Notes under the pieces: model-generated
The model's input: the letters and a program-made list of their open reading frames with translations, nothing else
Database searches by the model: none
What the model was told of the DNA's origin: nothing
In this document: positions 6,012 to 64,000 of the stretch, piece after piece
Layout of the letters: each line of letters opens with the position of its first letter
How positions within the stretch are numbered: position 1 is the first letter of the stretch
Source of the DNA: Sipunculus nudus
Taxonomy: Eukaryota; Annelida; Sipuncula; Golfingiida; Sipunculidae
DNA length: 64,000 nt
Assembly (NCBI GenBank): GCA_026874595.1
Contig: CM049320.1
Location: forward strand, 3,661,464-3,725,463
Reading direction: 5' to 3'
Made by a program: the position numbers and the translations under genes

Positions 6012-6031
6012 TTTATTAATTATTTATTTTG

Positions 6032-6868: not shown

Positions 6869-6915
6869 AGTTTCGATCCTGTTAAGGCCACAAGAAGCCT
6901 TATATCGTTCCCGTG

Positions 6916-7338: not shown

Positions 7339-7354
7339 CCCTGTCGATGCAGGG
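7339..7354. other. CCCTGC-CGAT-GCAGGG dyad (type unit)
   Basis: A 6-bp inverted repeat with a 4-nt loop in long units; here one pair is a T-G wobble (CCCTGT). Variants seen elsewhere are CCATGC (for example 8283), CCTTCC near 17611 and a changed right arm near 44036. Together with 7095-7109 (GCATC-TAACG-GATGC) and 7627-7641 (GCGTAG-CTA-CTACGC), it gives each long unit at least three short hairpins. Confidence 0.5.
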
Positions 7355-27134: not shown

Positions 27135-30100
27135 GTGTCGCCCTCTAGCGGACGAAAGGTACGTTGCGATTTCATACCTTTTCGATTCGCACAAGCCAAC
27201 ATTGTATCTGAAAACAAGACAAATCGACGAAAAAGAAGGAAGTCTGTAAATGCAGGACGACCGAATAAAAAGCGCGCGTTCTTTGATTCCAGATTATTTC
27301 CCAGTTTTAGAAATGTGCATCTAGCGGATGCCTTTGTCAGTTGATACATAGAAACACTGTCCAATCATGAAAGAATGACCTCTGCAAAATAATTAAATTC
27401 CACGGCCAACCTAGATGCATGAGACACAATACAACACGGCAATGTACAGGGAGAGATTTCAAGGCTGAAAGAAAACAGAAGAGTCTATTTGTTTTTCTGC
27501 GGCTTATATGTACTTTCTGCTATTGAGGGAAATGGATCGCTGATTTTGGAATGTTTATTACCCTGCCGATGCAGGGCTTCAGAAATTAATCATAGACTCA
27601 TTGTAGTGTTCCTCTCCACGGAAATCTTTAGTAAAAGGCGAAAGATTTGTACGTGGCTGAAGAGAAACCAGAGTGCACGTTAACCGAAACCACACCGACC
27701 CCTTGGAAGTCATTTTTCTTTTTTGTGGTATGCACAAGTTTCCTTCTCGTAAGATCAGACGCTTTCAATGCAGAACAGCAACATTGGCATATGCTTTGGT
27801 AGCTTTTCACGTATTTTCTGTAATTTAACAAATATGTTTTCACAACTCGCGTGGCTTACGCCATATTCTTTAAAACGTTTCCGTTACACTGACACAAATC
27901 AATGCAGTCAAAGGAAAGTAAAGGTGTATAGTCATTTTTTTCATCTTGTAGCCTGATATGTACGAATTGATTAAATGTATTTGACAGAAATTATTGTGTT
28001 TAGGTGTCCTCTAATGTGAAGCCTGTCTAGACAAGTTTCGATCCTGTAAAGGCCACAAGAAGCCTTTTATCGTTCAAGTGTCGCCCTCTAGCGGACGAAA
28101 GGTACGTTACGATTTCATACTTTTTCGATTCGCACAAGCCAACATTGTATCTGAAAACAAGACAAATCGACGAAAAAGAAGGAAGTCTGTAAATGCAGGA
28201 CGACCGAATAAAAATCGCGCGTTGTTTGATTCCAGATTATTTCCCAGTTTTAGAAATGTGCATCTAACGGATGCCTTTGTCAGTTGATACATAGAAACAC
28301 TGTCCAATCAGAAAAGAATGACCTCTGCAAAATAATTAAATTCCACGGCCAACCTAGATGCAAGAGATACAATACAACACGGCAATGTACAGGGAGAGAT
28401 TTCAAGGCTGAAAGAAAACAGAAGAGTCTATTTGTTTTTCTGCGGCCTAAATGTACTTTCTGCTATTGAGGGAAAGGGATCGCTGATTTTGAAATGTTTA
28501 TTACCCTGTCGATGCAGGGCTTCAGAAATTATTCATAGACTCATTGTAGTGTTCCTCTCCACGGAAATCTTTAGTAAAAGGCGAAAGATTTGTACGTGGC
28601 TGAAGAGAAACCAGAGTGCACGCTAACCGAAACCACACCGACCCCTTGGAAGTCATTTTTCTTTTTTGTGGTATGCACAAGTTTCCTTCTCGTAAGATCA
28701 GACGCTTTCAATGCAGAACAGCAACATTGGCATATGCTTTGGTAGCTTTTCACGTATTTTCTGTAATTTAACAAATATGTTTCCACAACTCGCGTAGGTA
28801 CTACGCCATATACTATAACACGTTTCCGTTACACTGAAACAAATCCATGCAGTAAAAGGAAAGTAAAGTGTATAGTCATTTTTTGCATCTCGTAGCCTGT
28901 TGTGTACCAGCTGATTACATTTATTTGACGGAAACTATTGTGGTTAGGTTTCCTGCAATGTGGAGCCTGTCTAGACAAGTTTCGATCCTGTTAAGGCCTC
29001 AAGAAGCCTTATATCGTTCCCGTGTCGCCCTCTAGCGGACGAAAGGTACGTTGCGATTTCATATCTTTTCGATTCGCACAAGCAAACATTATATCTGAAA
29101 ACAAGACAAATCGACGAAAAAGAAGGAAGCCTATCAATGCAGGACGACCGAATAAAAAGCGCGCGTTCTTTGATTCCAGATTATTTCCCAGTTTTAGAAA
29201 TGTGCATCTAACGGATGCCTTTGTCAGTTGATACATAGAAACACTGTCTAATCAGAAAAGAATGACCTCTGCAAAATAATTAAATTCCACGGCCAACCTA
29301 GATGCATGAGATACAATACAACATGGCAATGTACAGGGAGAGATTTCAAGGCTGAAAGAAAACAGAAGAGTATTTGTTTTTCTGCGGCTTAAATGTACTT
29401 TCTGCTATTGAGGGGAAGGGATCGCTGATTTTGAAATGTTTATTACCCTGCCGATGCAGGGCTTCAGAAATAATTCATAGACTCATTGTAGTGTTTCTCT
29501 CCACGGAAATCTTTAGTAAAAGGCGAAAGATTTGTACGTGGCTGAAGAGAAACCAGAGTGCACGCTAACCGAAACCACACCGACCCCTTGGAAGGCATTT
29601 TTCTTTTTTGTGGTATGCACAAGATTCCTTCTCGTAAGATCAGACGCTTTCAATGCAGAACAGTAACATTGGCATATCCTTTGGTAGCTTTTCATGTATT
29701 TTCTGTAATTTAACAAATATGTTTCCACAACTCGCGTAGCTACTACGCCATATACTATAACACGTTTCCGTTACACTGAAACAAATCCATGCAGTCAAAG
29801 GAAAGTAAAGTGTATAGTCATTTTTTGCATCTCGTAGCCTGTTGTGTACCAGTTGATTACATTTATTTGACAGAAACTATTGTGGTTAGGTTTCCTGCAA
29901 TGTGGAGCCTGTCTAGACATGTTTCGATCCTGTTAAGGCTGCAAGAAGCCTTATATCGTTATACCTTTTCGATTCGCACAAGCCAACATTGTATCTGAAA
30001 ACAAGACAAATCGACGAAAAAGAAGGAAGTCTGTAAATGCAGGACGACCGAATAAAAAGCGCGCGTTCTTTGATTCCAGATTATTTCCCAGTTTTAGAAA

Positions 30101-32103
30101 TGTGCATCTAACGGATGCGTTTGTCAGTTGATTCATAGAAACACTGTCCAATCAGAAAAGAATGACCTCTGCAAAATAATTAATTTCCCACGGCCACCCT
30201 AGATGCATGAGACACAATACAACACGGCAATGTACAGGGAGAGATTTCAAGGCTGAAAGAAAACAGAAGAGTCTATTTTTTCCTGCGGCTTAAATGTACT
30301 TTCTGCTATTGAGGGAAAGGGATTGCTGATTTTGGAATGTTTATTACCCTGCCGATGCAGGGCTTCAGAAATTAATCATAGACTCATTGTAGTGTTCCTC
30401 TCCACGGAAATCTTTAGTAAAAGGCGAAAGATTTGTACGTGGCTGAAGAGAAACCAGAGTGCACGATATCCGAAAGCACACCGACCCCTTGGAAGGCATT
30501 TTTCTTTTTTGTGGTATGCACAAATTACCTTCTCGTAAGATCAGACGCTTTCAATGCAGAACAGCAACATTGGCATATGCTTAGCTAGCTTTTAACGTAT
30601 TTTCTGTAATTTAACAAATATGTTTCACACCTCGCGTAGCTACTACGCCATATTCTATAACACGTTTCCGTTACACTAAAACAAATCAAAGCAGTCAAAG
30701 GAAAGTAAAGGTGTATAGTCATTTTTTTTGCATCTCGTAGCCTGTTGTGTACGAATTGATTAAATGTATTTGACAGAAATTATTCTGTTTAGGTTTCCTG
30801 CAATGTGGAGCCTGTCTAGACAAGTTTTGATCCTGTTAAGGCTACAAGAAGCCTTATATCGTTCCCGTGTCGCCCTCTAGCGGACGAAAGGTACGTAACG
30901 ATTTCATATCTTTTCGATTCGCACAAGCCAACATTATATCTGAAAACAAGACAAATCGACGAAAATGAAGGAAGCCTATCAATGCAGGACGACCGAATAA
31001 AAAGCGCGCGTTCTTTGATTCCAAATTATTTCCCAGTTTTAGAAATGTGCATCTAACGGATGCCTTTGTCAGTTGATACATAGAAACACTGTCCAATCAG
31101 AAAAGAATGACCTCTGCAAAATAATTCAATTCCACGGCCAACCTAGATGCATGAGATACAATACAACACGGCAATGTACAGGGAGAGATTTCAAGGCTGA
31201 AAGAAAACAGAAGAGTCTATTTGTTTTTCTGCGGCTTAAATGTACTTTCTGCTATTGAGGGGAAGGGATCGCGGATTTTGAAATGTTTATTACCCTGCCA
31301 ATGCAGGGCTTCAGAAATTAATCATAGACTCATTGTTGTGTTCCTCTCCACGGAAATCTTTAGTAAAAGGCGAAAGATTTGTACGTGACTGAAGAGAAAC
31401 CAGAGTGCACGCTAACCGAAACCACACCGACCCTTTGGAAGGTATTTTTCTTTTTTGTGGTATGCACAAGTTTCCTTCTCGTAAGATCAGACGCTTTCAA
31501 TGCAGAACAGTAACATTGGCATATGCTTTGGTAGCTTTTCACGTATTTTCTGTAATTTAACAAATATTTTTCCACAACTCGCGTAGCTACTACGCCATAT
31601 ACCATAACACGTTTTAGTTCCATGCAGTCAAAGGAAAGTAAAGTGTATAGTCATTTTTTTTGCATCTCGTAGCCTTTTGTGTACCAGTTGATTACATTGA
31701 CTTGACTGAAACTATCGTGGTTAGGTTTCCTGCAATGTGGAGCCTGTCTAGACAAGTTTCGATCCTGTTAAGGCCACAAGAAGCCTTTTATCGTTCCCGT
31801 GTCGCCCTCCGGCGGACAAAAGGTACGTTACGATTTGACAACTTGTAATTTAACAAATATTTTTTCACAACTCGCGTAGCTACTACGCCATATTCTATAA
31901 CACGTTTCGGTTACACTAAAACAAATCAAAGCAGTCAAAGGAAAGCAAAGTGTATAGTCATTTTTTGCATCTCGTAGCCTGTTGTGTACCAGTTAATTAC
32001 ATTTATTTGACAGAAACTATTGTGGTTAGGTTTCCTGCAATGTGGAGCCTGTCTAGACAAGTTTCGATCCTGTTAAGGCTACAAGAAGCCATATATCGTT
32101 CCC
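27135..32103 (+). repeat. Partial higher-order copy
   Basis: Landmarks are 27135, 28078, 29022, about 29951 (42-bp deletion), 30867 and 31799 (short). The block from 27135 to 32104 is 4,969 bp, exactly the spacing of 33339-38308 and 49196-54165, with the same unit order and subtype markers. It is the left-most recognisable copy of that segment of the higher-order repeat. It carries private changes such as CTAGCGGATGCC near 27322. Confidence 0.85.
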
Positions 32104-35100
32104 GTGTCGCCCTCTAGCGGACGAAAGGTACGTTGCGATTTCATACCTTTTCGATTCGCACAAGCCAACATTGTATCTGAAAACAAGACAAATCGACGAA
32201 AAAGAAGGAAGCCTGTAAATGCAGGACGACCGAATAAAAAGCGCGCGTTCTTTGATTCCAGATTATTTCCCAGTTTTAGAAATGTGCATCTAACGGATGC
32301 CTTTGTCAGTTGATACATAGAAACACTGTCCAATCAGAAAAGAATGACCTCTGCAAAATAATTCAATTCCACGGCCAACCTAGATGCATGAGATACAATA
32401 CAACACGGCAATGTACAGGGAGAGATTTCAAGGCTGAAAGAAAACAGAAGAGTCTATTTGTTTTTCTGCGGCTTATATGTACTTTCTGCTATTGAGGGGA
32501 AGGGATCGCTGATTTTGAAATGTTTATTACCCTGCCGATGCAGGGCTTCAGAAATTAATCATAGACTCATTGTTGTGTTCCTCTCCACGGAAATCTTTAG
32601 TAAAAGGCGAAAGATTTGTACGTGACTGAAGAAAAACCAGAGTGCACGCTAACCGAAACCACACCGACCCTTTGGAAGGTATTTTTCTTTTTTGTGGTAT
32701 GCACAAGTTTCCTTCTCGTAAGATCAGACGCTTTCAATGCAGAACAGTAACATTGGCATATGCTTTGGTAGCTTTTCACGTATTTTCTGTAATTTAACAA
32801 ATATTTTTACACAACTCGCGTAGCTACTACGCCATATACCATAACACGTTTTCAGTCCATGCAGTCAAAGGAAAGTAAAGTGTATAGTCATTTTTTTGCA
32901 TCTCGTAGCCTGTTGTGTACCAGTTGATACATTTACTTGACAGAAACTATTGTGGTTAGGTTTCCTGCAATGTGGAGCCTGTCTAGACAAGTTTCGATCC
33001 TGTTAAGGCCACAAGAAGCCTTTTATCGTTCCCGTGTCGCCCTCCGGCAGACAAAAGGTACATTACGATTTGACAACTTGTAATTTAACAAATATTTTTT
33101 CACAACTCGCGTAGCTACTACGCCATATTCTATAACACGTTTCGGTTACACTAAAACAAATCAAAGCAGTCAAAGGAAAGTAAAGTGTATAGTCATTTTT
33201 TGCATCTCGTAGCCTGTTGTGTACCAGTTGATTACATTTATTTGACAGAAACTATTGTGGTTAGGTTTCCTGCAATGTGGAGCCTGTCTAGACAAGTTTC
33301 GATCCTGTTAAGGCTACAAGAAGCCTTATATCGTTCCCGTGTCGCCCTCTAGCGGACGAAAGGTACGTTGCGATTTCATACCTTTTCGATTCGCACAAGC
33401 CAACATTGTATCTGAAAACAAGACAAATCGACGAAAAAGAAGGAAGTCTGTAAATGCAGGACGACCGAATAAAAAGCGCGCGTTCTTTGATTCCAGATTA
33501 TTTCCCAGTTTTAGAAATGTGCATCTAACGGATGCCTTTGTCAGTTGATACATAGAAACACTGTCCAATCAGAAAAGAATGACCTCTGCAAAATAATTAA
33601 ATTCCACGGCCAACCTAGATGCATGAGACACAATACAACACGGCAATGTACAGGGAGAGATTTCAAGGCTGAAAGAAAACAGAAGAGTCTATTTGTTTTT
33701 CTGCGGCTTATATGTACTTTCTGCTATTAAGGGAAATGGATCGCTGATTTTGGAATGTTTATTACCCTGCCGATGCAGGGCTTCAGAAATTAATCATAGA
33801 CTCATTGTAGTGTTCCTCTCCACGGAAATCTTTAGTAAAAGGCGAAAGATTTGTACGTGGCTGAAGAGAAACCAGAGTGCACGCTAACCGAAACCACACC
33901 GACCCCTTGGAAGTCATTTTTCTTTTTTGTGGTATGCACAAGTTTCCTTCTCGTAAGATCAGACGCTTTCAATGCAGAACAGCAACATTGGCATACGCTT
34001 TGGTAGCTTTTCACGTATTTTCTGTAATTTAACAAATATGTTTTCACAACTCGCGTGGCTTACGCCATATTCTTTAAAACGTTTCCGTTACACTGACACA
34101 AATCAATGCAGTCAAAGGAAAGTAAAGGTGTATAGTCATTTTTTTCATCTTGTAGCCTGATATGTACGAATTGATTAAATGTATTTGACAGAAATTATTG
34201 TGTTTAGGTGTCCTCTAATGTGAAGCCTGTCTAGACAAGTTTCGATCCTGTAAAGGCCACAAGAAGCCTTTTATCGTTCAAGTGTCGCCCTCTAGCGGAC
34301 GAAAGGTACGTTACGATTTCATACCTTTTCGATTCGCACAAGCCAACATTGTATCTGAAAACAAGACAAATCGACGAAAAAGAAGGAAGTCTGTAAATGC
34401 TGGACGACCGAATAAAAAGCGCGCGTTCTTTGATTCCAGATTATTTCCCAGTTTTAGAAATGTGCATCTAACGGATGCCTTTGTCAGTTTATACATAGAA
34501 ACACTGTCCAATCAGAAAAGAATGACCTCTGCAAAATAATTAAATTCCACGGCCAACCTAGATCCAAGAGATACAATACAACACGGCAATGTACAGGGAG
34601 AGATTTCAAGGCTGAAAGAAAACAGAAGAGTCTATTTGTTTTTCTGCGGCCTAAATGTACTTTCTGCTATTGAGGGAAAGGGATCGCTGATTTTGAAATG
34701 TTTATTACCCTGTCGATGCAGGGCTTCAGAAATTATTCATAGACTCATTGTAGTGTTCCTCTCCACGGAAATCTTTAGTAAAAGGCGAAAGATTTGTACG
34801 TGGCTGAAGAGAAACCAGAGTGCATGCTAACCGAAACCACACCGACCCCTTGGAAGTCATTTTTCTTTTTTGTGGTATGCACAAGTTTCCTTCTCGTAAG
34901 ATCAGACGCTTTCAATGCAGAACAGCAACATTGGCATATGCTTTGGTAGCTTTTCACGTATTTTCTATAATTTAACAAATATGTTTCCACAACTCGCGTA
35001 GGTACTACGCCATATACTATAACACGTTTCCGTTACACTGAAACAAATCCATGCAGTCAAAGGAAAGTTAAGTGTATAGTCATTTTTTGCATCTCGTAGC

Positions 35101-38100
35101 CTGTTGTGTACCAGCTGATTACATTTATTTGACGGAAACTATTGTGGTTAGGTTTCCTGCAATGTGGAGCCTGTCTAGACAAGTTTCGATCCTGTTAAGG
35201 CCTCAAGAAGCCTTATATCGTTCCCGTGTCGCCCTCTAGCGGACAAAAGGTACGTTGCGATTTCATATCTTTTCGATTCGCACAAGCCAACATTATATCT
35301 GAAAACAAGACAAATCGACGAAAAAGAAGGAAGCCTATCAATGCAGGACGACCGAATAAAAAGCGCGCGTTCTTTGATTCCAGATTATTTCCCAGTTTTA
35401 GAAATGTGCATCTAACGGATGCCTTTGTCAGTTGATACATAGAAACACTGTCTAATCAGATAAGAATGACCTCTGCAAAATAATTAAATTCCACGGCCAA
35501 CCTAGATGCATGAGATACAATACAACATGGCAATGTACAGGGAGAGAATTCAAGGCTGAAAGAAAACAGAAGAGTATTTGTTTTTCTGCGGCTTAAATGT
35601 ACTTTCTGCTATTGAGGGGAAAGGATCGCTGATTTTGAAATGTTTATTACCCTGCCGATGCAGGGCTTCAGAAATAATTCATAGACTCATTGTAGTGTTT
35701 CTCTCCACGGAAATCTTTAGTAAAAGGCGAAAGATTTGTACGTGGCTGAAGAGAAACCAGAGTGCACGCTAACCGAAACCACACCGACCGCTTGGAAGGC
35801 ATTTTTCTTTTTTGTGGTATGCACAAGTTTCCTTCTCGTAAGATCAGACGCTTTCATTGCAGAACAGTAACATTGGCATATCCTTTGGTAGCTTTTCATG
35901 TATTTTCTGTAATTTAACAAATATGTTTCCACAACTCGCGTAGCTACTACGCCATATACTATAACACGTTTCCGTTACACTGAAACAAATCCATGCAGTC
36001 AAAGGAAAGTAAAGTGTATAGTCATTTTTTGCATCTCGTAGCCTGTTGTGTACCAGTTGATTACATTTATTTGACAGAAACTATTGTGGTTAGGTTTCCT
36101 GCAATGTGGAGCCTGTCTAGACATGTTTCGATCCTGTTAAGGCTGCAAGAAGCCTTATATCGTTATACCTTTTCGATTCGCACAAGCCAACATTGTATCT
36201 GAAAACAAGACAAATCGACGAAAAAGAAGGAAGTCTGTAAATGCAGGACGACCGAATAAAAAGCGCGCGTTCTTTGATTCCAGATTATTTCCCAGTTGTA
36301 GAAATGTGCATCTAACGGATGCGTTTGTCAGTTGATTCATAGAAACACTGTCCAATCAGAAAAGAATCACCTCTGCAAAATAATTAATTTCCCACGGCCA
36401 CCCTAGATGCATGAGACACAATACAACACGGCAATGTACAGGGAGAGATTTCAAGGCTGAAAGAAAACAGAAGAGTCTATTTTTTCCTGCGGCTTAAATG
36501 TACTTTCTGCTATTGAGGGAAAGGGATTGCTGATTTTGGAATGTTTATTACCCTGCCGATGCAGGGCTTCAGAAATTAATCATAGACTCATTGTAGTGTT
36601 CCTCTCCACGGAAATCTTTAGTAAAAGGCGAAAGATTTGTACGTGGCTGAAGAGAAACCAGAGTGCACGCTATCCGAAAGCACACCGACCCCTTGGAAGG
36701 CATTTTTCTTTTTTGTGGTATGCACAAATTACCTTCTCGTAAGATCAGACGCTTTCAATTCAGAACAGCAACATTGGCATATGCTTAGCTAGCTTTTAAC
36801 GTATTTTCTGTAATTTAACAAATATGTTTCACACCTCGCGTAGCTACTACGCCATATTCTATAACACGTTTCCGTTACACTAAAACAAATCAAAGCAGTC
36901 AAAGGAAAGTAAAGGTGTATAGTCATTTTTTTTGCATCTCGTAGCCTGTTGTGTACGAATTGATTAAATGTATTTGACAGAAATTATTCTGTTTAGGTTT
37001 CCTGCAATGTGGAGCCTGTCTAGACAAGTTTCGATCCTGTTAAGGCCACAAGAAGCCTTATATCGTTCCCGTGTCGCCCTCTAGCGGACGAAAGGTACGT
37101 AACTATTTCATATCTTTTCGATTCGCACAAGCCAACATTATATCTGAAAACAAGACAAATCGACGAAAATGAAGGAAGCCTATCAATGCAGGACGACCGA
37201 ATAAAAAGCGCGCGTTCTTTGATTCCAAATTATTTCCCAGTTTTAGAAATGTGCATCTAACGGATGCCTTTGTCAGTTGATACATAGAAACACTGTCCAA
37301 TCAGAAAAGAATGACCTCTGCAAAATAATTAAATTCCACGGCCAACCTAGATGCATGAGATACAATACAACACGGCAATGTACAGGGAGAGATTTCAAGG
37401 CTGAAAGAAAACAGAAGAGTCTATTTGTTTTTCTGCGGCTTAAATGTACTTTCTGCTATTGAGGGGAAGGGATCGCGGATTTTGAAATGTTTATTACCCT
37501 GCCGATGCAGGGCTTCAGAAATTAATCATAGACTCATTGTTGTGTTCCTCTCCACGGAAATCTTTAGTAAAAGGCGAAAGATTTGTACGTGACTGAAGAG
37601 AAACCAGAGTGCACGCTAACCGAAACCACACCGACCCTTTGGAAGGTATTTTTCTTTTTTGTGGTATGCACAAGTTTCCTTCTCGTAAGATCAGACGCTT
37701 TCAATGCAGAACAGTAACATTGGCATATGCTTTGGTAGCTTTTCACGTATTTTCTGTAATTTAACAAATATTTTTCCACAACTCGCGTAGCTACTACGCC
37801 ATATACCATAACACGTTTTAGTTCCATGCAGTCAAAGGAAAGTAAAGTGTATAGTCATTTTTTTTGCATCTCGTAGCCTTTTGTGTACCAGTTGATTACA
37901 TTGACTTGACTGAAACTATCGTGGTTAGGTTTCCTGCAATGTGGAGCCTGTCTAGACAAGTTTCGATCCTGTTAAGGCCACAAGAAGCCTTTTATCGTTC
38001 CCGTGTCGCCCTCCGGCGGACAAAAGGTACGTTACGATTTGACAACTTGTAATTGAACAAATATTTTTTCACAACTCGCGTAGCTACTACGCCATATTCT

Positions 38101-50900: not shown

Positions 50901-53900
50901 ACAAATCCATGCAGTCAAAGGAAAGTAAAGTGTATAGTCATTTTTTGCATCTCGTAGCCTGTTGTGTACCAGCTGATTACATTTATTTGACGGAAACTAT
51001 TGTGGTTAGGTTTCCTGCAATGTGGAGCCTGTCTAGACAAGTTTCGATCCTGTTAAGGCCTCAAGAAGCCTTATATCGTTCCCGTGTCGCCCTCTAGCGG
51101 ACAAAAGGTACGTTGCGATTTCATATCTTTTCGATTCGCACAAGCCAACATTATATCTGAAAACAAGACAAATCGACGAAAAAGAAGGAAGCCTATCAAT
51201 GCAGGACGACCGAATAAAAAGCGCGCGTTCTTTGATTCCAGATTATTTCCCAGTTTTAGAAATGTGCATCTAACGGATGCCTTTGTCAGTTGATACATAG
51301 AAACACTGTCTAATCAGATAAGAATGACCTCTGCAAAATAATTAAATTCCACGGCCAACCTAGATGCATGAGATACAATACAACATGGCAATGTACAGGG
51401 AGAGAATTCAAGGCTGAAAGAAAACAGAAGAGTATTTGTTTTTCTGCGGCTTAAATGTACTTTCTGCTATTGAGGGGAAGGGATCGCTGATTTTGAAATG
51501 TTTATTACCCTGCCGATGCAGGGCTTCAGAAATAATTCATAGACTCATTGTAGTGTTTCTCTCCACGGAAATCTTTAGTAAAAGGCGAAAGATTTGTACG
51601 TGGCTGAAGAGAAACCAGAGTGCACGCTAACCGAAACCACACCGACCCCTTGGAAGGCATTTTTCTTTTTTGTGGTATGCACAAGTTTCCTTCTCGTAAG
51701 ATCAGACGCTTTCATTGCAGAACAGTAACATTGGCATATCCTTTGGTAGCTTTTCATGTATTTTCTGTAATTTAACAAATATGTTTCCACAACTCGCGTA
51801 GCTACTACGCCATATACTATAACACGTTTCCGTTACACTGAAACAAATCCATGCAGTCAAAGGAAAGTAAAGTGTATAGTCATTTTTTGCATCTCGTAGC
51901 CTGTTGTGTACCAGTTGATTACATTTATTTGACAGAAACTATTGTGGTTAGGTTTCCTGCAATGTGGAGCCTGTCTAGACATGTTTCGATCCTGTTAAGG
52001 CTGCAAGAAGCCTTATATCGTTATACCTTTTCGATTCGCACAAGCCAACATTGTATCTGAAAACAAGACAAATCGACGAAAAAGAAGGAAGTCTGTAAAT
52101 GCAGGACGACCGAATAAAAAGCGCGCGTTCTTTGATTCCAGATTATTTCCCAGTTTTAGAAATGTGCATCTAACGGATGCGTTTGTCAGTTGATTCATAG
52201 AAACACTGTCCAATCAGAAAAGAATCACCTCTGCAAAATAATTAATTTCCCACGGCCACCCTAGATGCATGAGACACAATACAACACGGCAATGTACAGG
52301 GAGAGATTTCAAGGCTGAAAGAAAACAGAAGAGTCTATTTTTTCCTGCGGCTTAAATGTACTTTCTGCTATTGAGGGAAAGGGATTGCTGATTTTGGAAT
52401 GTTTATTACCCTGCCGATGGAGGGCTTCAGAAATTAATCATAGACTCATTGTAGTGTTCCTCTCCACGGAAATCTTTAGTAAAAGGCGAAAGATTTGTAC
52501 GTGGCTGAAGAGAAACCAGAGTGCACGCTATCCGAAAGCACACCGACCCCTTGGAAGGCATTTTTCTTTTTTGTGGTATGCACAAATTACCTTCTCGTAA
52601 GATCAGACGCTTTCAATGCAGAACAGCAACATTGGCATATGCTTAGCTAGCTTTTAACGTATTTTCTGTAATTTAACAAATATGTTTCACACCTCGCGTA
52701 GCTACTACGCCATATTCTATAACACGTTTCCGTTACACTAAAACAAATCAAAGCAGTCAAAGGAAAGTAAAGGTGTATAGTCATTTTTTTTGCATCTCGT
52801 AGCCTGTTGTGTACGAATTGATTAAATGTATTTGACAGAAATTATTCTGTTTAGGTTTCCTGCAATGTGGAGCCTGTCTAGACAAGTTTCGATCCTGTTA
52901 AGGCCACAAGAAGCCTTATATCGTTCCCGTGTCGCCCTCTAGCGGACGAAAGGTACGTAACTATTTCATATCTTTTCGATTCGCACAAGCCAACATTGTA
53001 TCTGAAAACAAGACAAATCGACGAAAATGAAGGAAGCCTATCAATGCAGGACGACCGAATAAAAAGCGCGCGTTCTTTGATTCCAAATTATTTCCCAGTT
53101 TTAGAAATGTGCATCTAACGGATGCCTTTGTCAGTTGATACATAGAAACACTGTCCAATCAGAAAAGAATGACCTCTGCAAAATAATTAAATTCCACGGC
53201 CAACCTAGATGCATGAGATACAATACAACACGGCAATGTACAGGGAGAGATTTCAAGGCTGAAAGAAAACAGAAGAGTCTATTTGTTTTTCTGCGGCTTA
53301 AATGTACTTTCTGCTATTGAGGGGAAGGGATCGCGGATTTTGAAATGTTTATTACCCTGCCGATGCAGGGCTTCAGAAATTAATCATAGACTCATTGTTG
53401 TGTTCCTCTCCACGGAAATCTTTAGTAAAAGGCGAAAGATTTGTACGTGACTGAAGAGAAACCAGAGTGCACGCTAACCGAAACCACACCGACCCTTTGG
53501 AAGGTATTTTTCTTTTTTGTGGTATGCACAAGTTTCCTTCTCGTAAGATCAGACGCTTTCAATGCAGAACAGTAACATTGGCATATGCTTTGGTAGCTTT
53601 TCACGTATTTTCTGTAATTTAACAAATATTTTTCCACAACTCGCGTAGCTACTACGCCATATACCATAACACGTTTTAGTTCCATGCAGTCAAAGGAAAG
53701 TAAAGTGTATAGTCATTTTTTTGCATCTCGTAGCCTTTTGTGTACCAGTTGATTACATTGACTTGACTGAAACTATCGTGGTTAGGTTTCCTGCAATGTG
53801 GAGCCTGTCTAGACAAGTTTCGATCCTGTTAAGGCCACAAGAAGCCTTTTATCGTTCCCGTGTCGCCCTCCGGCGGACAAAAGGTACGTTACGATTTGAC

Positions 53901-56900
53901 AACTTGTAATTTAACAAATATTTTTTCACAACTCGCGTAGCTACTACGCCATATTCTATAACACGTTTCGGTTACACTAAAACAAATCAAAGCAGTCAAA
54001 GGAAAGTAAAGTGTATAGTCATTTTTTGCATCTCGTAGCCCGTTGTGTACCAGTTGATTACATTTATTTGACAGAAACTATTGTGGTTAGGTTTCCTGCA
54101 ATGTGGAGCCTGTCTAGACAAGTTTCGATCCTGTTAAGGCTACAAGAAGCCTTATATCGTTCCCGTGTCGCCCTCTAGCGGACGAAAGGTACGTTGCGAT
54201 TTCATACCTTTTCGATTCGCACAAGCCAACATTGTATCTGAAAACAAGACAAATCGACGAAAAAGAAGGAAGTCTGTAAATGCAGGACGACCGAATAAAA
54301 AGCGCGCGTTCTTTGATTCCAGATTATTTCCCAGTTTTAGAAATGTGCATCTAACGGATGCCTTTGTCAGTTGATACATAGAAACACTGTCCAATCAGAA
54401 AAGAATGACCTCTGCAAAATAATTCAATTCCACGGCCAACCTAGATGCATGAGATACAATACAACACGGCAATGTACAGGGAGAGATTTCAAGGCTGAAA
54501 GAAAACAGAAGAGTCTATTTGTTTTTCTGCGGATTATATGTACTTTCTGCTATTGAGGGGAAGGGATCGCTGATTTTGAAATGTTTATTACCCTGCCGAT
54601 GCAGGGCTTCAGAAATTAATCATAGACTCATTGTTGTGTTCCTCTCCACGGAAATCTTTAGTAAAAGGCGAAAGATTTGTACGTGACTGAAGAGAAACCA
54701 GAGTGCACGCTAACCGAAACCACACCGACCCTTTGGAAGGTATTTTTCTTTTTTGTGGTATGCACAAGTTTCCTTCTCGTAAGATCAGACGCTTTCAATG
54801 CAGAACAGTAACATTGGCATATGCTTTGGTAGCTTTTCACGTATTTTCTGTAATTTAACAAATATTTTTCCACAACTCGCGTAGCTACTACGCCATATAC
54901 CATAACACGTTTTCGTTCCATGCAGTCAAAGGAAAGTAAAGTGTATAGTCATTTTTTTGCATCTCGTAGCCTGTTGTGTACCAGTTGATTACATTTACTT
55001 GACAGAAACTATTGTGGTTAGGTTTCCTGCAATGTGGAGCCTGTCTAGACAAGTTTCGATCCTGTTAAGGCCACAAGAAGCCTTTTATCGTTCCCATGTT
55101 GCCCTCCGGCAGACAAAAGGTACGTTACGATTTGACAACTTGTAATTTAACAAATATTTTTTCACAACTCGCGTAGCTACTACGCCATATTCTATAACAC
55201 GTTTCGGTTACACTAAAACAAATCAAAGCAGTCAAAGGAAAGTAAAGTGTATAGTCATTTTTTGCATCTCGTAGCCTGTTGTGTACCAGTTGATTACATT
55301 TATTTGACAGAAACTATTGTGGTTAGGTTTCCTGCAATGTGGAGCCTGTCTAGACAAGTTTCGATCCTGTTAAGGCTACAAGAAGCCTTATATCGTTCCC
55401 GTGTCGCCCTCTAGCGGACGAAAGGTACGTTGCGATTTCATACCTTTTCGATTCGCACAAGCCAACATTGTATCTGAAAACAAGACAAATCGACGAAAAA
55501 GAAGGAAGTCTGTAAATGCAGGACGACCGAATAAAAAGCGCGCGTTCTTTGATTCCAGATTATTTCCCAGTTTTAGAAATGTGCATCTAACGGATGCCTT
55601 TGTCAGTTGATACATAGAAACACTGTCCAATCAGAAAAGAATGACCTCTGCAAAATAATTCAATTCCACGGCCAACCTTGATGCATGAGATACAATACAA
55701 CACGGCAATGTACAGGGAGAGATTTCAAGGCTGAAAGAAAACAGAAGAGTCTATTTGTTTTTCTGCGGATTATATGTACTTTCTGCTATTGAGGGGAAGG
55801 GATCGCTGATTTTGAAATGTTTATTACCCTGCCGATGCAGGGCTTCAGAAATTATTTATAGACTCATTGTTGTGTTCCTCTCCACGGAAATCTTTAGTAA
55901 AAGGCGAAAGATTTGTACGTGACTGAAGAGAAACCAGAGTGCACGCTAACCGAAACCACACCGACCCTTTGGAAGGTATTTTTCTTTTTTGTGGTATCCA
56001 CAAGTTTCCTTCTCGTAAGATCAGACGCTTTCAATGCAGAACAGTAACATTGGCATATGCTTTGGTAGCTTTTCACGTATTTTCTGTAATTTAACAAATA
56101 TGTTTTCACAACTCGCGTGGCTTACGCCATATTCTTTAAAACGTTTCCGTTACACTGACACAAATCAATGCAGTCAAAGGAAAGTAAAGGTGTATAGTCA
56201 TTTTTTTCATCTTGTAGCCTGATATGTACGAATTGATTAAATGTATTTGACAAAAATTATTGTGTTTAGGTGTCCTCTAATGTGAAGCCTGTCTAGACAA
56301 GTTTCGATCCTGTAAAGATCACAAGAAGCCTTTTATCGTTCAAGTGTCGCCCTCTAGCGGACAAATGGTACGTTGCGATTTCATACCTTTTCGATTCGCA
56401 CAAGCCAACATTGTATCTGAAAACAAGACAAATCGACGAAAAAGAAGAACCCTATCAATGCAGGACGACCGAAAAAAAAGCGCGCGTTCTTTGATTCCAG
56501 ATTATTTCCCAGTTTTAGAAATGTGCATCTAACGGATGCCTTTGTCAGTTGATACATAGAAACACTGTCCAATCAGAAAAGAATGACCTCTGCAAAATAA
56601 TTAAATTCCACGGCCAACCTAGATGCATGAGATACAATACAACACGGCAATGTACAGGGAGAGATTTCAAGGCTGAAAGAAAACAGAAGAGTCTATTTGT
56701 TTTTCTGCGGCTTATATGTACTTTCTTCTATTGAGGGAAAGGGATCGCTGATTTTGAAATGTTTATTACCATGCCGATGCATGGCTTCAGAAATTAATCT
56801 TAGACTCATTGTAGTGTTCCTCTCCACGGAAATCTTTAGTAAAAGGCGAAAGATTTGTACGTGGCTGAAGAAAAACCAGAGTGCACGCTAACCGAAACCA

Positions 56901-59900
56901 CACCGACCCCTTGGAAGGCATTTTTCTTTTTTTGTGGTATGCACAAGTTTCCTTCTCGTAAGATCAGACGCTTTCAATGCAGAACAGTAACATTGGCATA
57001 TGCTTTGGTAGCTTTTCACGTATTTTCTGTAATTTAACAAATATTTTTCCACAACTCGCGTAGCTACTACGCCATATACTATAACACGTTTTTGTTCCAT
57101 GCAGTCAAAGGAAAGTAAAGGTGTATAGTCATTTTTTTTATCTTGTAGCCTGATATGTACGAATTGATTAAATGTATTTGACAGAAATTATTGTGTTTAG
57201 GTGTCCTCTAATGTGAAGCCTGTCTAGACAAGTTTCGATCCTGTAAAGGCCACAAGAAGCCTTTTATCGTTCAAGTGTCGCCCTCTAGCGGACGAAAGGT
57301 ACGTTACGATTTCATACCTTTTCGATTCGCACAAGCCAACATTGTATCTGAAAACAAGACAAATCGACGAAAAAGAAGGAAGTCTGTAAATGCAGGTCGA
57401 CCGAATAAAAATCGCGCGTTCTTTGATTCCAGATTATTTCCCAGTTTTAGAAATGTGCATCTAACGGATGCCTTTGTCAGTTGATACATAGAAACACTGT
57501 CCAATCAGAAAAGAATGACCTCTGCAAAATAATTAAATTCCACGGCCAACCTAGATGCAAGAGATACAATACAACACGGCAATGTACAGGGAGAGATTTC
57601 AAGGCTGAAAGAAAACAGAAGAGTCTATTTGTTTTTCTGCGGCCTAAATGTACTTTCTGCTATTGAGGGGAAGGGATCGCTGATTTTGAAATGTTTATTA
57701 CCCTGCCGATGCAGGGCTTCAGAAATTATTCATAGACTCATTGTAGTGTTCCTCTCCACGGAAATCTTTAGTAAAAGGCGAAAGATTTGTACGTGGCTGA
57801 AGAGAAACCAGAGTGCACGCTAACCGAAACCACACCGACCCCTTGGAAGTCATTTTTCTTTTTTGTGGTATGCACAAGTTTCCTTCTCGTAAGATCAGAC
57901 GCTTTCAATGCAGAACAGTAACATTGGCATATGCTTTGGTAGCTTTTCACGTATTTTCTGTAATTTAACAAATATGTTTCCACAACTCGCGTAGGTACTA
58001 CGCCATATACTATAACACGTTTCCGTTACACTGAAACAAATCCATGCAGTCAAAGGAAAGTAAAGTGTATAGTCATTTTTTTTTGCATCTCGTAGCCTGT
58101 TGTGTACGAATTTATCAAATGTATTTGACAGAAATTATTCTGTTTAGGTTTCCTGCAATGTGGAGCCTGTCTAGACAAGTTTCGATCCTGTTAAGGCCAC
58201 AAGAAGCCTTATATCGTTCCCGTGTCGCCCTCTAGCGGACGAAAGGTACGTTACGATTTCATACCTTTTCGATTCGCACAAGCCAACATTATATCTGAAA
58301 ACAAGACAAATCGACGAAAAAGAAGGAAGCCTATCAATGCAGGACGACCGAATAAAAAGCGCGCGTTCTTTGATTCCAGATTATTTCCCAGTTTTAGAAA
58401 TGTGCATCTAACGGATGCCTTTGTCAGTTGATTCATAGAAACACTGTCCAATCAGAAAAGAATAACCTCTGCAAAATAATTAATTTCCCACGGCCACCCT
58501 AGATGCATGAGACACAATACAACACGGCAATGTACAGGGAGAGATTTCAAGGCTGAAAGAAAACAGAAGAGTCTATTTGTTTTTCTGCGGCTTAAATGTA
58601 CTTTCTGCTATTGAGGGGAAGGGATCGCTGATTTTGAAATGTTTATTACCCTGCCGATACAGGGCTTCAGAAATTAATCATAGACTCATTGTAGTGTTCC
58701 TCTCCACGGAAATCTTTAGTAAAAGGCGAAAGATTTGTACGTGGCTGAAGAGAAACCAGAGTGCACGCTAACCGAAACCACACCGACCCCTTGGAAGGCA
58801 TTTTTCTTTTTTGTGGTATGCACAAGTTTCCTTCTCGTAAGATCAGACGCTTTCAATGCAGAACAGCAACATTGGCATATGCTTAGCTAGCTTTTAACGT
58901 ATTTTCTGTAATTTAACAAATATGTTTCACACCTCGCGTAGCTACTACGCCATATTCTATAACACGTTTCCGTTACACTAAAACAAATCAAAGCAGTCAA
59001 AGGAAAGTAAAGGTGTATAGTCATTTTTTTTGCATCTCGTAGCCTGTTGTGTACGAATTGATTAAATGTATTTGACAGAAATTATTCTGTTTAGGTTTCC
59101 TGCAATGTGGAGCCTGTCTAGACAAGTTTTGATCCTGTTAAGGCCACAAGAAGCCTTATATCGTTCCCGTGTCGCCCTCTAGCGGACGAAAGGTACGTAA
59201 CGATTTCATATCTTTTCGATTCGCACAAGCCAACATTATATCTGAAAACAAGACAAATCGACGAAAATGAAGGAAGCCTATCAATGCAGGACGACCGAAT
59301 AAAAAGCGCGCGTTCTTTGATTCCAAATTATTTCCCAGTTTTAGAAATGTGCATCTAACGGATGCCTTTGTCAGTTGATACATAGAAACACTGTCCAATC
59401 AGAAAAGAATGACCTCTGCAAAATAATTCAATTCCACGGCCAACCTAGATGCATGAGATACAATACAACACGGCAATGTACAGGGAGAGATTTCAAGGCT
59501 GAAAGAAAACAGAAGAGTCTATTTGTTTTTCTGCGGCTTAAATGTACTTTCTGCTATTGAGGGGAAGGGATCGCGGATTTTGAAATGTTTATTACCCTGC
59601 CGATGCAGGGCTTCAGAAATTAATCATAGACTCATTGTTGTGTTCCTCTCCACGGAAATCTTTAGTAAAAGGCGAAAGATTTGTACGTGACTGAAGAAAA
59701 ACCAGAGTGCACGCTAACCGAAACCACACCGACCCTTTGGAAGGTATTTTTCTTTTTTGTGGTATGCACAAGTTTCCTTCTCGTAAGATCAGACGCTTTC
59801 AATGCAGAACAGTAACATTGGCATATGCTTTGGTAGCTTTTCACGTATTTTCTGTAATTTAACAAATATTTTTCCACAACTCGCGTAGCTACTACGCCAT

Positions 59901-61636
59901 ATACCATAACACGTTTTAGTTCCATGCAGTCAAAGGAAAGTAAAGTGTATAGTCATTTTTTTTGCATCTCGTAGCCTTTTGTGTACCAGTTGATTACATT
60001 GACTTGACTGAAACTATCGTGGTTAGGTTTCCTGCAATGTGGAGCCTGTCTAGACAAGTTTCGATCCTGTTAAGGCCACAAGAAGCCTTTTATCGTTCCC
60101 GTGTCGCCCTCCGGCGGACAAAAGGCACGTTACGATTTGACAACTTGTAATTTAACAAATATTTTTTCACAACTCGCGTAGCTACTACGCCATATTCTAT
60201 AACACGTTTCGGTTACACTAAAACAAATCAAAGCAGTCAAAGGAAAGTAAAGTGTATAGTCATTTTTTGCATCTCGTAGCCTGTTGTGTACCAGTTGATT
60301 ACATTTATTTGACAGAAACTATTGTGGTTAGGTTTCCTGCAATGTGGAGCCTGTCTAGACAAGTTTCGATCCTGTTAAGGCTACAAGAAGCCTTATATCG
60401 TTCCCGTGTCGCCCTCTAGCGGACGAAAGGTACGTTGCGATTTCATACCTTTTCGATTCGCACAAGCCAACATTGTATCTGAAAACAAGACAAATCGACG
60501 AAAAAGAAGGAAGTCTGTAAATGCAGGACGACCGAATAAAAAGCGCGCGTTCTTTGATTCCAGATTATTTCCCAGTTTTAGAAATGTGCATCTAACGGAT
60601 GCCTTTGTCAGTTGATACATAGAAACACTGTCCAATCAGAAAAGAATGACCTCTGCAAAATAATTCAATTCCACGGCCAACCTAGATGCATGAGATACAA
60701 TACAACACGGCAATGTACAGGGAGAGATTTCAAGGCTGAAAGAAAACAGAAGAGTCTATTTGTTTTTCTGCGGATTATATGTACTTTCTGCTATTGAGGG
60801 GAAGGGATCGCTGATTTTGAAATGTTTATTACCCTGCCGATGCAGGGCTTCAGAAATTAATCATAGACTCATTGTTGTGTTCCTCTCCACGGAAATCTTT
60901 AGTAAAAGGCGAAAGATTTGTACGTGACTGAAGAGAAACCAGAGTGCACGCTAACCGAAACCACACCGACCCTTTGGAAGGTATTTTTCTTTTTTGTGGT
61001 ATGCACAAGTTTCCTTCTCGTAAGATCAGACGCTTTCAATGCAGAACAGTAACATTGGCATATGCTTTGGTAGCTTTTCACGTATTTTCTGTAATTTAAC
61101 AAATATTTTTCCACAACTCGCGTAGCTACTACGCCATATACTATAACACGTTTTCGTTCCATGCAGTCAAAGGAAAGTGTATAGTCATTTTTTTGCATCT
61201 CGTAGCCTGTTGTGTACCAGTTGATTACATTTACTTGACAGAAACTATTGTGGTTAGGTTTCCTGCAATGTGGAGCCTGTCTAGACAAGTTTCGATCCTG
61301 TTAAGGCCACAAGAAGCCTATTATCGTTCCCGTGTCGCCCTCCGGCAGACAAAAGGTACGTTACGATTTGACAACTTGTAATTTAACAAATATTTTTTCA
61401 CAACTCGCGTAGCTACTACGCCATATTCTATAACACGTTTCGGTTACACTAAAACAAATCAAAGCAGTCAAAGGAGAGCAAAGTGTATAGTCATTTTTTG
61501 CATCTCGTAGCCTGTTGTGTACCAGTTAATTACATTTATTTGACAGAAACTATTGTGGTTAGGTTTCCTGCAATGTGGAGCCTGTCTAGACAAGTTTCGA
61601 TCCTGTTAAGGCTACAAGAAGCCATATATCGTTCCC
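47961..61636 (+). repeat. Higher-order repeat, copy 2 (13,676 bp, 18 units)
   Basis: Long-unit landmarks are 47961, 49196, 50140, 51084, 52013 (42-bp deletion), 52929, 54165, 55401, 56344, 57275, 58222, 59169 and 60406. Short units start at 48891, 53860, 55096, 60101 and 61332. Offsets to copy 1 are 15,857-15,858 up to 55401, 14,621-14,622 from 56344, and 13,676 from 60101. Each step equals one dimer or one monomer. Sequence identity to copy 1 is very high by eye. Indels such as the shortened GGAAAGTGTATAG near 47500 and 61175 are shared. Confidence 0.9.
55401..56343 (+). repeat. Hybrid monomer from unequal exchange
   Basis: The first part matches unit 39544, including the private CCTTGATGCATG (about 55677; compare 39819) and GGTATTTTTC. 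The tail matches unit 40780 (ATGTTTTCACAAC, GCGTGGCTTACGCC). The switch lies between the last 39544-type base (T of CAGTAAC, about 56045) and the first 40780-type base (G at 56102). One 1,236-bp dimer is missing as a result. Confidence 0.8.
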
Positions 61637-64000
61637 GTGTCGCCCTCTAGCGGACGAAAGGTACGTTGCGATTTCATACCTTTTCGATTCGCACAAGCCA
61701 ACATTGTATCTGAAAACAAGACAAATCGACGAAAAAGAAGGAAGTCTGTAAATGCAGGACGACCGAATAAAAAGCGCGCGTTCTTTGATTCCAGATTATT
61801 TCCCAGTTTTAGAAATGTGCATCTAACGGATGCCTTTGTCAGTTGATACATAGAAACACTGTCCAATCAGAAAAGAATGACCTCTGCAAAATAATTCAAT
61901 TCCACGGCCAACCTAGATGCATGAGATACAATACAACACGGCAATGTACAGGGAGAGATTTCAAGGCTGAAAGAAAACAGAAGAGTCTATTTGTTTTTCT
62001 GCGGCTTATATGTACTTTCTGCTATTGAGGGGAAGGGATCGCTGATTTTGAAATGTTTATTACCCTGCCGATGCAGGGCTTCAGAAATTAATCATAGACT
62101 CATTGTTGTGTTCCTCTCCACGGAAATCTTTAGTAAAAGGCGAAAGATTTGTACGTGACTGAAGAGAAACCAGAGTGCACGCTAACCGAAACCACACCGA
62201 CCCTTTGGAAGGTATTTTTCTTTTTTGTGGTATGCACAAGTTTCCTTCTCGTAAGATCAGACGCTTTCAATGCAGAACAGTAACATTGGCATATGCTTTG
62301 GTAGCTTTTCACGTATTTTCTGTAATTTAACAAATATTTTTACACAACTCGCGTAGCTACTACGCCATATACCATAACACGTTTTCAGTCCATGCAGTCA
62401 AAGGAAAGTAAAGTGTATAGTCATTTTTTTGCATCTCGTAGCCTGTTGTGTACCAGTTGATACATTTACTTGACAGAAACTATTGTGGTTAGGTTTCCTG
62501 CAATGTGGAGCCTGTCTAGACAAGTTTCGATCCTGTTAAGGCCACAAGAAGCCTTTTATCGTTCCCGTGTCGCCCTCCGGCAGACAAAAGGTACATTACG
62601 ATTTGACAACTTGTAATTTAACAAATATTTTTTCACAACTCGCGTAGCTACTACGCCATATTCTATAACACGTTTCGGTTACACTAAAACAAATCAAAGC
62701 AGTCAAAGGAAAGTAAAGTGTATAGTCATTTTTTGCATCTCGTAGCCTGTTGTGTACCAGTTGATTACATTTATTTGACAGAAACTATTGTGGTTAGGTT
62801 TCCTGCAATGTGGAGCCTGTCTAGACAAGTTTCGATCCTGTTAAGGCTACAAGAAGCCTTATATCGTTCCCGTGTCGCCCTCTAGCGGACGAAAGGTACG
62901 TTGCGATTTCATACCTTTTCGATTCGCACAAGCCAACATTGTATCTGAAAACAAGACAAATCGACGAAAAAGAAGGAAGTCTGTAAATGCAGGACGACCG
63001 AATAAAAAGCGCGCGTTCTTTGATTCCAGATTATTTCCCAGTTTTAGAAATGTGCATCTAACGGATGCCTTTGTCAGTTGATACATAGAAACACTGTCCA
63101 ATCAGAAAAGAATGACCTCTGCAAAATAATTCAATTCCACGGCCAACCTAGATGCATGAGACACAATACAACACGGCAATGTACAGGGAGAGATTTCAAG
63201 GCTGAAAGAAAACAGAAGAGTCTATTTGTTTTTCTGCGGCTTATATGTACTTTCTGCTATTAAGGGAAATGGATCGCTGATTTTGGAATGTTTATTACCC
63301 TGCCGATGCAGGGCTTCAGAAATTAATCATAGACTCATTGTAGTGTTCCTCTCCACGGAAATCTTTAGTAAAAGGCGAAAGATTTGTACGTGGCTGAAGA
63401 GAAACCAGAGTGCACGCTAACCGAAACCACACCGACCCCTTGGAAGTCATTTTTCTTTTTTTGTGGTATGCACAAGTTTCCTTCTCGTAAGATCAGACGC
63501 TTTCAATGCAGAACAGCAACATTGGCATACGCTTTGGTAGCTTTTCACGTATTTTCTGTAATTTAACAAATATGTTTTCACAACTCGCGTGGCTTACGCC
63601 ATATTCTTTAAAACGTTTCCGTTACACTGACACAAATCAATGCAGTCAAAGGAAAGTAAAGGTGTATAGTCATTTTTTTCATCTTGTAGCCTGATATGTA
63701 CGAATTGATTAAATGTATTTGACAGAAATTATTGTGTTTAGGTGTCCTCTAATGTGAAGCCTGTCTAGACAAGTTTCGATCCTGTAAAGGCCACAAGAAG
63801 CCTTTTATCGTTCAAGTGTCGCCCTCTAGCGGACGAAAGGTACGTTACGATTTCATACCTTTTCGATTCGCACAAGCCAACATTGTATCTGAAAACAAGA
63901 CAAATCGACGAAAAAGAAGGAAGTCTGTAAATGCAGGACGACCGAATAAAAAGCGCGCGTTCTTTGATTCCAGATTATTTCCCAGTTTTAGAAATGTGCA
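61637..64000 (+). repeat. Higher-order repeat, copy 3 (start only)
   Basis: Landmarks are 61637, 62567 (short), 62872 and 63816, at offset 13,676 from copy 2. The array is cut by the window end inside the unit begun at 63816. Markers such as CTATTAAGGGAAATGG (about 63258) and the missing base in GTTGATACATTTACTTG (about 62456) agree with copies 1 and 2 at the corresponding places. Confidence 0.85.

What the first reader, a model, noticed from the sequence alone, without database searches (positions are those of the whole stretch)
27135..64000. Multi-unit higher-order satellite repeat of 13.7-15.9 kb
Landmark spacing repeats as an ordered series of 943-, 930-, 916- and 305-bp units. Copy 2 to copy 3 has a constant lag of 13,676 bp. 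Copy 1 to copy 2 has a lag of 15,857 bp that drops in two steps equal to one dimer and one monomer. An 18-21-unit higher-order repeat built from a 943-bp monomer and its deletion derivative is large compared with most described satellites. It implies long-range homogenisation, as at centromeres.
Basis: seen in the sequence. Interest (0 to 1): 0.75.

Follow-up and report, generated by a model that had tools for sequence, protein, structure and literature searches.

The report
Tandem U5 spliceosomal RNA gene array
What looked like a centromere-type satellite is a long tandem array of genes for U5, an RNA needed for splicing, in which whole blocks of 16 to 21 repeat units have been copied in order.

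Summary
The ordered repeat is real. A 21-unit block (34023-49880) is followed by an 18-unit copy (49881-63556) and the first 444 bp of a third. Corresponding units are 99.8% identical, non-corresponding ones 96.4% (0 of 20,000 shuffles reach the observed value). The lag falls 15,858 to 14,621 to 13,676 bp by one dimer and one monomer, as reported. Units of 916 or 305 bp do not occur inside the given coordinates.

The identification is wrong. Each of 53 long units carries a complete U5 snRNA gene on the minus strand; none of 24 short units does. The short units are a deletion derivative without gene or promoter. In the 1.43-Gb assembly the array spans about 216 kb of contig C15, insertions included, with at least 159 U5 genes, four full ordered copies of the large block and part of a fifth. 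A promoter-like element is shared with four dispersed U5 genes. The array has its own U5 variant. It is a tandem snRNA gene array, a known kind, with unusually clear higher-order structure, most likely made by unequal exchange. Expression and centromere function are untested.

The parts
6507..64000 (-). Part of the U5 snRNA gene array inside the window (genes on the minus strand); it continues on both sides in the assembly (C15 about 3577225-3793619)
7338..63413 (-). 53 complete U5 snRNA genes, one in each of 53 full-length units (first 7338-7454, last 63297-63413; all coordinates)
   Evidence: Rfam RF00020, 83.2-96.5 bits, gathering score 40
37496..37612 (-). Representative U5 gene; across the window loop I CGCCTTTTACTAAAG is intact in 52 of 53 and the Sm-like site AATTTCTGA in 50 of 53
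31551..31843 (.). Representative short (S, 293 bp) unit: holds unit positions 1 to about 298, then 7 bases of its own; no U5 gene, no proximal promoter; 24 such units in the window
   Evidence: no RF00020 match
26874..34022 (.). U30 and the 8-unit half block U31-U38 (27819-34022, 6,204 bp) before copy 1
34023..49880 (.). Higher-order repeat copy 1: 21 units, 15,858 bp
49881..63556 (.). Higher-order repeat copy 2: 18 units, 13,676 bp
63557..64000 (.). First 444 bp of higher-order repeat copy 3, identical to the start of copy 2
   Evidence: continuation
40228..41463 (.). S+L dimer (U47-U48) present in copy 1, absent from copy 2: accounts for the lag step 15,857 to 14,621
44285..45230 (.). L monomer (U52) present in copy 1, absent from copy 2: accounts for the lag step 14,622 to 13,676
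42407..43336 (.). U50, 930-bp mosaic unit: columns 60-110 are like an S unit (1 difference, same 14-column deletion; best L 17 differences), the rest is like a type-3 L unit; trace of an S-L exchange
1..6506 (.). Right part of a 9,484-bp insertion inside the array (C15:3658485-3667968), with the 11-bp direct repeat AGTGCACGCTA of the U5 5' end on both sides; a dispersed element family, not part of the gene unit

Best explanation
This is a tandem array of U5 spliceosomal snRNA genes. Each long unit carries a whole U5 gene, a promoter-like element about 50 bp upstream and a 3'-box-like sequence about 8 bp downstream. Unequal crossing-over and gene conversion amplified the units, spread one 287-305-bp deletion derivative without a gene, and repeatedly duplicated runs of 16-21 units, which left the higher-order order. 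The array most likely supplies gene dosage for a U5 variant, transcribed by RNA polymerase II as snRNA genes are. Shown here: gene content, order, block duplications, a mosaic unit, one array in the scored genome matches. Inferred: transcription, use in splicing, and unequal exchange as the mechanism.
For: 53 of 53 L units and 0 of 24 S units in the window carry U5; 105 more genes in L010-L023 and 1 in L024, 159 in all. Loop I intact in 122 of 124 and AATTTCTG in 116 of 124 L units of 880-960 bp from the whole region (33 unit intervals of other lengths, many of them 962-970-bp units, were left out). Promoter-like element: the array consensus and four dispersed U5 genes have 4 columns identical in 5 of 5 within 20 bp (-52, -51, -50, -45); letter shuffles reach this in 7 of 5000 and random registers in 9 of 5000 (I had seen the motif by eye before the test). 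Its ACC is present in 113 of 124 array units, absent in 1, and 10 could not be scored. Stem-loop I core: 5 of 35 variable sites against 315 of 827 in spacer, p = 0.0038. Corresponding-unit identity 0.9980 against 0.964; tree; mosaic S-L unit. U1 in the same genome also lies in tandem arrays (42 scored hits, two places on C6).
Against: Constraint on the whole U5 gene is weak: 19 of 117 variable sites against 191 of 827 in spacer, p = 0.098; in the larger region 37 of 117 against 315 of 827, p = 0.19. The promoter-like region is no less variable than spacer inside the array (9 of 22 sites, p = 0.83). No covariation beyond the controls. 12 U1 genes compared are invariant (0 of 164 sites) while the U5 genes are not, though those 12 were the first of 42 equally scored best hits. 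4 of 105 U5 copies outside the window score only 66-75 bits and some matches are 112-124 bases long instead of 117. No expression data.
Confidence: 0.8

Rival explanations
1. The array is now mostly a U5-derived satellite: units once were genes, but expansion is by exchange alone and splicing relies on the dispersed U5 genes on C9, C10 and C13.
For: Weak constraint on the whole gene; near-fixed difference from the dispersed genes (CACGTACAAATC in 119 of 124 array units, CACGCATAAATC in 0 of 124; the four dispersed genes read CACGCATAAATC); 4 of 105 copies at 66-75 bits; 12 U1 genes compared are invariant.
Against: Loop I in 122 of 124, Sm-like site in 116 of 124 and promoter ACC in 113 of 124 units; reduced variation in the stem-loop I core; among 26 representatives of the window, 0 of 117 gene sites show an indel against 69 of 827 spacer sites.
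Confidence: 0.17
2. A centromeric or pericentromeric satellite with higher-order repeats.
For: True higher-order architecture, edge fragments at 80-86% identity (other pieces at the right edge are 95-96%), element insertions in the array.
Against: Each L unit is a U5 gene unit; the spacer piece matched only here among the 40 of 166 candidates scored; no CENP-B-box core in the window; position 3.6-3.8 Mb on a 64.2-Mb contig.
Confidence: 0.03
3. The long-range order is an assembly artefact (mis-joined or duplicated reads).
For: Very high identity in part: 3 mismatches in 5,094 aligned bases at lag 13,676. No reads available.
Against: Copies differ by whole units and by scattered substitutions (7 of 943 and 8 of 2,180 in other stretches), and four full copies with different unit losses and part of a fifth lie in one contig.
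Confidence: 0.04

Closest known systems
Human RNU2 locus (U2 snRNA genes in a 6.1-kb tandem unit, 6-82 copies; PMC3795722, passages read)
   Same: Polymerase II snRNA gene in every tandem unit, one array
   Different: U5 instead of U2; 0.94-kb unit; gene-free short units; [quoted passage not shown]
U2-U5 snDNA repeats of teleost fish such as Plectorhinchus mediterraneus (PMC3464664, passages read)
   Same: U5 genes in a repeat with promoter element and 3' box
   Different: There U5 is linked with U2; here no other Rfam gene was found in the unit
Tandem U snRNA families (U1, U2, U5, U6) of morabine grasshoppers (PMC7754599, passages read)
   Same: U5 among the tandem multigene families recovered from reads
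   Different: Unit structure and higher-order order of U5 not given in the passages read
Xenopus laevis U5 genes (Kazmaier, Tebb and Mattaj 1987; not held; tandem repetition recalled)
   Same: U5 repeats, as recalled
   Different: Could not be checked
ClatSat13-761 of the tapeworm Caryophyllaeus laticeps (PMC12274263, passages read)
   Same: A repeat first listed as a satellite that proves to hold an snRNA gene
   Different: U1; no higher-order repeat in the passages read
Alpha-satellite higher-order repeats (PMC11050224 and others, search listing only)
   Same: Ordered multi-monomer blocks far more alike than their monomers (recalled)
   Different: Alpha satellite is gene-free centromeric DNA (recalled); here the monomer is a gene unit

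Membership tests
U5 spliceosomal snRNA gene (Rfam RF00020) | Match to the family model above the curated score | tested here: met
   53 matches at 83.2-96.5 bits, gathering score 40
U5 spliceosomal snRNA gene (Rfam RF00020) | Conserved loop I and an Sm-binding site | tested here: met
   Loop I 52 of 53; AATTTCTGA 50 of 53. The site has C where the Rfam consensus has U; three of four dispersed genes have the same C
U5 spliceosomal snRNA gene (Rfam RF00020) | snRNA-type promoter (PSE) and 3' box | tested here: inconclusive
   Shared element at -52 to -45 with four dispersed U5 genes; 3'-box-like TTTCAAAATCAGC in 36 of 53, 13 more differ by one base, 4 not read by the pattern; box consensus recalled
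U5 spliceosomal snRNA gene (Rfam RF00020) | Transcribed and assembled into snRNP | not testable with these tools
   No expression data
Tandem snRNA gene array | Many head-to-tail units each with the gene | tested here: met
   159 genes, all on the minus strand of one stretch of C15
Higher-order repeat array | Corresponding units in successive blocks more alike than units within a block | tested here: met
   0.9980 against 0.964, 0 of 20,000 shuffles; tree
Centromeric satellite DNA | Repeat without a functional-type gene | tested here: not met
   U5 gene in each of 53 L units
Centromeric satellite DNA | Usually present on several chromosomes | tested here: inconclusive
   57 listed matches all in this array, but only 40 of 166 candidates were scored
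Centromeric satellite DNA | CENP-A chromatin | not testable with these tools
   No chromatin data

The most novel reading that the evidence does not exclude
The array is a dedicated locus for a specialised U5 isoform, distinct from the dispersed U5 genes by near-fixed bases beside stem-loop I, expressed at a stage of very high demand (oocyte or early embryo), and its block-wise amplification sets the dose of that isoform. Gene arrays would then form higher-order repeats by the same exchange process as centromeric satellites, without any centromere.
Probability: 0.3. Interest if true: 0.6.

Novelty: new variant of a known kind. Interest (0 to 1): 0.4.

Why it matters
It shows that alpha-satellite-like higher-order repeats can arise in an array of RNA gene units, so this architecture alone is no sign of a centromere. 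It offers a natural case in which the units can be scored for function (loop I, Sm site, promoter) while exchange reorders them. It also warns that satellite catalogues may list snRNA gene arrays as satellites. If the array-specific U5 is expressed, U5 isoform use becomes directly testable, because array and dispersed U5 RNAs differ at near-fixed bases.

Tried and rejected
Centromeric satellite: rejected mainly on gene content, as weaker support. Other RNA genes or tRNAs: no other Rfam family at the gathering score in the window, none up to E 5 in 34023-41463, no tRNA. Window units in public collections: exact patterns gave 0 matches in viral contigs and in bacterial and archaeal genome contigs. 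A U5-targeting retrotransposon: the 9.48-kb insertion sits at the U5 5' end with an 11-bp direct repeat, and PMC4640811 lists only U2, U1 and U6 as snRNA-gene targets of transposons (passages read). The idea was dropped because the second insertion at the same site looks like a copy of the first (elements 99.45% and left flanks 99.8% identical; against this, the right flanks are only 96.0% identical over 1,399 bp, which needs a later exchange), and because the family matches on 15 contigs (42 matches listed; 40 of 419 candidates scored). The target sites of those other copies were not examined. Reverse-transcriptase identity of the ORF at 6032-6397 (minus strand): no Pfam family, best PDB match E 0.0066 to a helicase and not convincing, no relative in viral contigs; the likeness to a Jockey-type C-terminus is recalled only. 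Covariation test of the U5 structure: uninformative. One script failed on BLAST settings (question answered by another method); one stopped at its last line after printing the other results (that count redone).
Full report
What is there. From 6507 to the end, the window is a head-to-tail array of 53 long units (901-948 bp, mostly 942-946) and 24 short units (287-305 bp), with one partial unit at the end. The short units hold unit positions 1 to about 298 followed by 7 bases of their own; the five whose ends were printed share the same junction, so they look like one deletion derivative. They are more like each other (0.958) than like long units (0.923) over the first 285 columns; long units among themselves are 0.942 alike there.

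The order. Clustering the units gives, from U31, the run 3-10-12-6-s-14-s-15, then 3-10-12-6-s-14-s-14-s-15-1-2-5-6-6-s-14-s-14-s-15 (34023-49880, 21 units), then 3-10-12-6-s-14-s-14-1-2-5-6-s-14-s-14-s-15 (49881-63556, 18 units). 18 of the 21 units of the first block pair with the 18 of the second at 0.9980 mean identity; within-copy pairs are 0.9638 and 0.9636 and non-corresponding cross pairs 0.9638; 0 of 20,000 shuffles of unit order within class reach 0.9980. Ungapped diagonals, which need no unit segmentation, include lags 6,204, 13,676, 14,622, 15,857/15,858 and 22,062. The drop from 15,857 to 14,621 is the dimer U47-U48 and the drop to 13,676 the monomer U52. The last 444 bases repeat the start of copy 2 exactly. 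A maximum-likelihood tree of the 53 long units groups them by position in the block (19 of 47 inner branches strongly supported, 19 drawn open).

What the unit is. Rfam's U5 model (RF00020) matches 53 times in the window, always on the minus strand, once in each long unit and never in a short one, at 83.2-96.5 bits against a curated cut-off of 40. A permissive scan of 34023-41463 up to E 5 showed nothing else. The unit is therefore an snRNA gene unit. Loop I is intact in 52 of 53 and the Sm-like site AATTTCTGA in 50 of 53. The short unit lacks the gene and the 142 bp in front of it, and lies upstream of a gene.

The whole locus. The genome search placed the window at C15:3661464-3725463 of a 1.43-Gb assembly in 153 contigs. 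The species was not identified. Reading C15:3571464-3805463, unit matches run from 3577225 to 3793619, 237 of 238 BLAST pieces on one strand (up to 3795463). Edge fragments are 80-86% like the consensus, with some right-edge pieces at 95-96%. cmscan found 105 U5 genes in L010-L023 and 1 in L024, none in L009 and L040; with the window's 53 this is 159, and genes cut by the ends of the 10-kb stretches may be missing. The large block continues: copies begin at 3695486, 3711344, 3725020, about 3737464 and about 3751140; the third is shorter by one dimer (lag 12,444) and the fifth is incomplete (the last two starts are worked out from labels and lags). For this labelling 186 unit intervals (124 long, 62 short) were used and 33 intervals of other lengths were left out, among them many 962-970-bp and some 853-855-bp units in the left part. 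Other local higher-order repeats have periods of 3,146 and 4,342 bp to the left and 6,865 bp to the right. So the locus is a patchwork of separately amplified blocks.

Genome distribution. A 481-bp piece of the unit without the gene matched 57 times, all in this array (40 of 166 candidates scored). A U5 query taken from C13 found four dispersed genes (C9, C10, two on C13), one 104-base match at C15:3907585 on the other strand, and 35 matches in the array (40 of 171 candidates scored).

Is it a working gene array? For: BLAST finds no likeness between the unit and the four dispersed loci except the gene and up to about 35 bp behind it. Yet with position +1 set four bases before CTCTGG, columns -52, -51, -50 and -45 are identical in all five (four genes and the array consensus), which letter shuffles reach in 7 of 5000 and random registers in 9 of 5000. 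I had noticed the motif by eye before testing; the statistic takes the best 20-bp window anywhere in 140 bp. ACC stands there in 113 of 124 array units; 10 could not be scored and one lacks it. A 3'-box-like TTTCAAAATCAGC follows the gene in 36 of 53 units, 13 others differ by one base and 4 were not read by the pattern (box consensus recalled). In 51 representatives of the larger region the stem-loop I core (nt 24-58, chosen for its known role but after a first look at variation by position) has 5 of 35 variable sites against 315 of 827 in spacer, p = 0.0038; 4 of 909 windows of that size are as low or lower. Against: the gene as a whole is not clearly more conserved than spacer (19 of 117 against 191 of 827, p = 0.098; 37 of 117 against 315 of 827, p = 0.19); the promoter-like region is as variable as spacer inside the array (9 of 22, p = 0.83); covariation does not exceed its controls; 4 of 105 copies outside the window score only 66-75 bits, two of them probably the genes split by the 1.37-kb insertion. 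In contrast 12 U1 genes of the same genome have 0 of 164 variable sites against 72 of 2,729 in their spacers, but these 12 come from the 42 best-scoring, equally scored hits, which favours identical genes.

A variant U5. The array reads CACGTACAAATC beside stem-loop I in 119 of 124 units and never CACGCATAAATC, the form of all four dispersed genes. At the 5' end the array has CACTCTGG and three of the four dispersed genes have TACTCTGG; the second C13 gene has CACTCTGG too, so that difference is not clean. U5 isoforms with changing use in development are known in Drosophila and mouse (PMC4291461, passages read), which makes an isoform role plausible, not shown.

How it works, most likely. Unequal exchange and conversion between units, dimers and blocks: whole-unit gains and losses between copies; a mosaic unit U50 that in columns 60-110 is like a short unit (1 difference, with its 14-column deletion, against 17 for the best long unit) and from column 110 on like a type-3 long unit; insertions copied with array DNA (9.48-kb insertion at C15:3629003 and 3658485, 99.45% identical, left flanks 99.8% but right flanks 96.0%; 1.37-kb poly(A)-ended insertion at 3600814 and 3647286, 99.8%).

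Literature. Searches for U5 gene tandem arrays listed, among others, fish U2-U5 repeats (PMC3464664, passages), grasshopper tandem U snRNA families (PMC7754599, passages), linked U3-U5 genes of Euglena (PMC2784804, listing only) and a coral paper that cites 5S rDNA linkage with U1, U2 and U5 in fish (PMC8167085, passages). The search for higher-order repeat with snRNA and gene array returned 0 papers. In the search for satellite DNA, U5 snRNA and higher-order repeat (two of three terms; 220 papers, 20 listed) the grasshopper paper was the only listed one that holds U5 snRNA. The library lacks most subscription journals, so this is weak evidence of absence. The tapeworm repeat ClatSat13-761, first listed as a satellite and found to be U1 (PMC12274263, passages), is a close parallel to the misreading here.

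Verdict. Observation right in its main points, interpretation right on architecture and wrong on identity. Tandem snRNA gene arrays are known; the gene-free short units, the nested blocks and the array-specific U5 variant make this a new variant of a known kind.

Noticed in passing
window 1-6506 (C15:3658485-3667968): 9,484-bp insertion with strong strand asymmetry in its right part, internal tandem repeats with a period of about 179 bp and two partial copies of the same element (its positions 1-980 and 5757-6722 are 92% alike); 11-bp direct repeats AGTGCACGCTA at the U5 5' end. A second copy lies at C15:3629003-3638476.
   Followed up: partly
G000 C2:25.09-25.11 Mb, C3:13.19-13.27 Mb, C5:80.13-80.15 Mb, C14:19.16-19.28 Mb, C15:35.31-35.33 Mb, C17:43.99-44.03 Mb: Among the 42 listed matches to the same element family, several lie in tight clusters on these six contigs (40 of 419 candidates scored). 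Such clusters might mark centromeric regions; on C15 the cluster is about 31 Mb from the U5 array.
   Followed up: no
C15:3600814-3602181 and 3647286-3648651: 1.37-kb insertion ending in poly(A), inside a U5 gene, with a direct repeat of about 15 bp (one mismatch), present twice at 99.8% identity: copied with the array.
   Followed up: partly
G000 C6:50.26-50.37 Mb and 88.24-88.30 Mb: Two tandem U1 snRNA gene arrays in opposite orientation on one contig, spacing mostly 2.8-2.9 kb; the 42 scored U1 genes all have the same score.
   Followed up: partly
C15:3907585-3907688 (+): A single 104-base U5 match, 97% to the C13 gene (the array copies listed match it at 93%), about 114 kb beyond the array and on the other strand.
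   Followed up: no
C15:3760161-3793619: Right end of the array: U5 unit fragments (about 450 and 538 bp) split by other DNA and amplified with a 6,865-bp period.
   Followed up: partly
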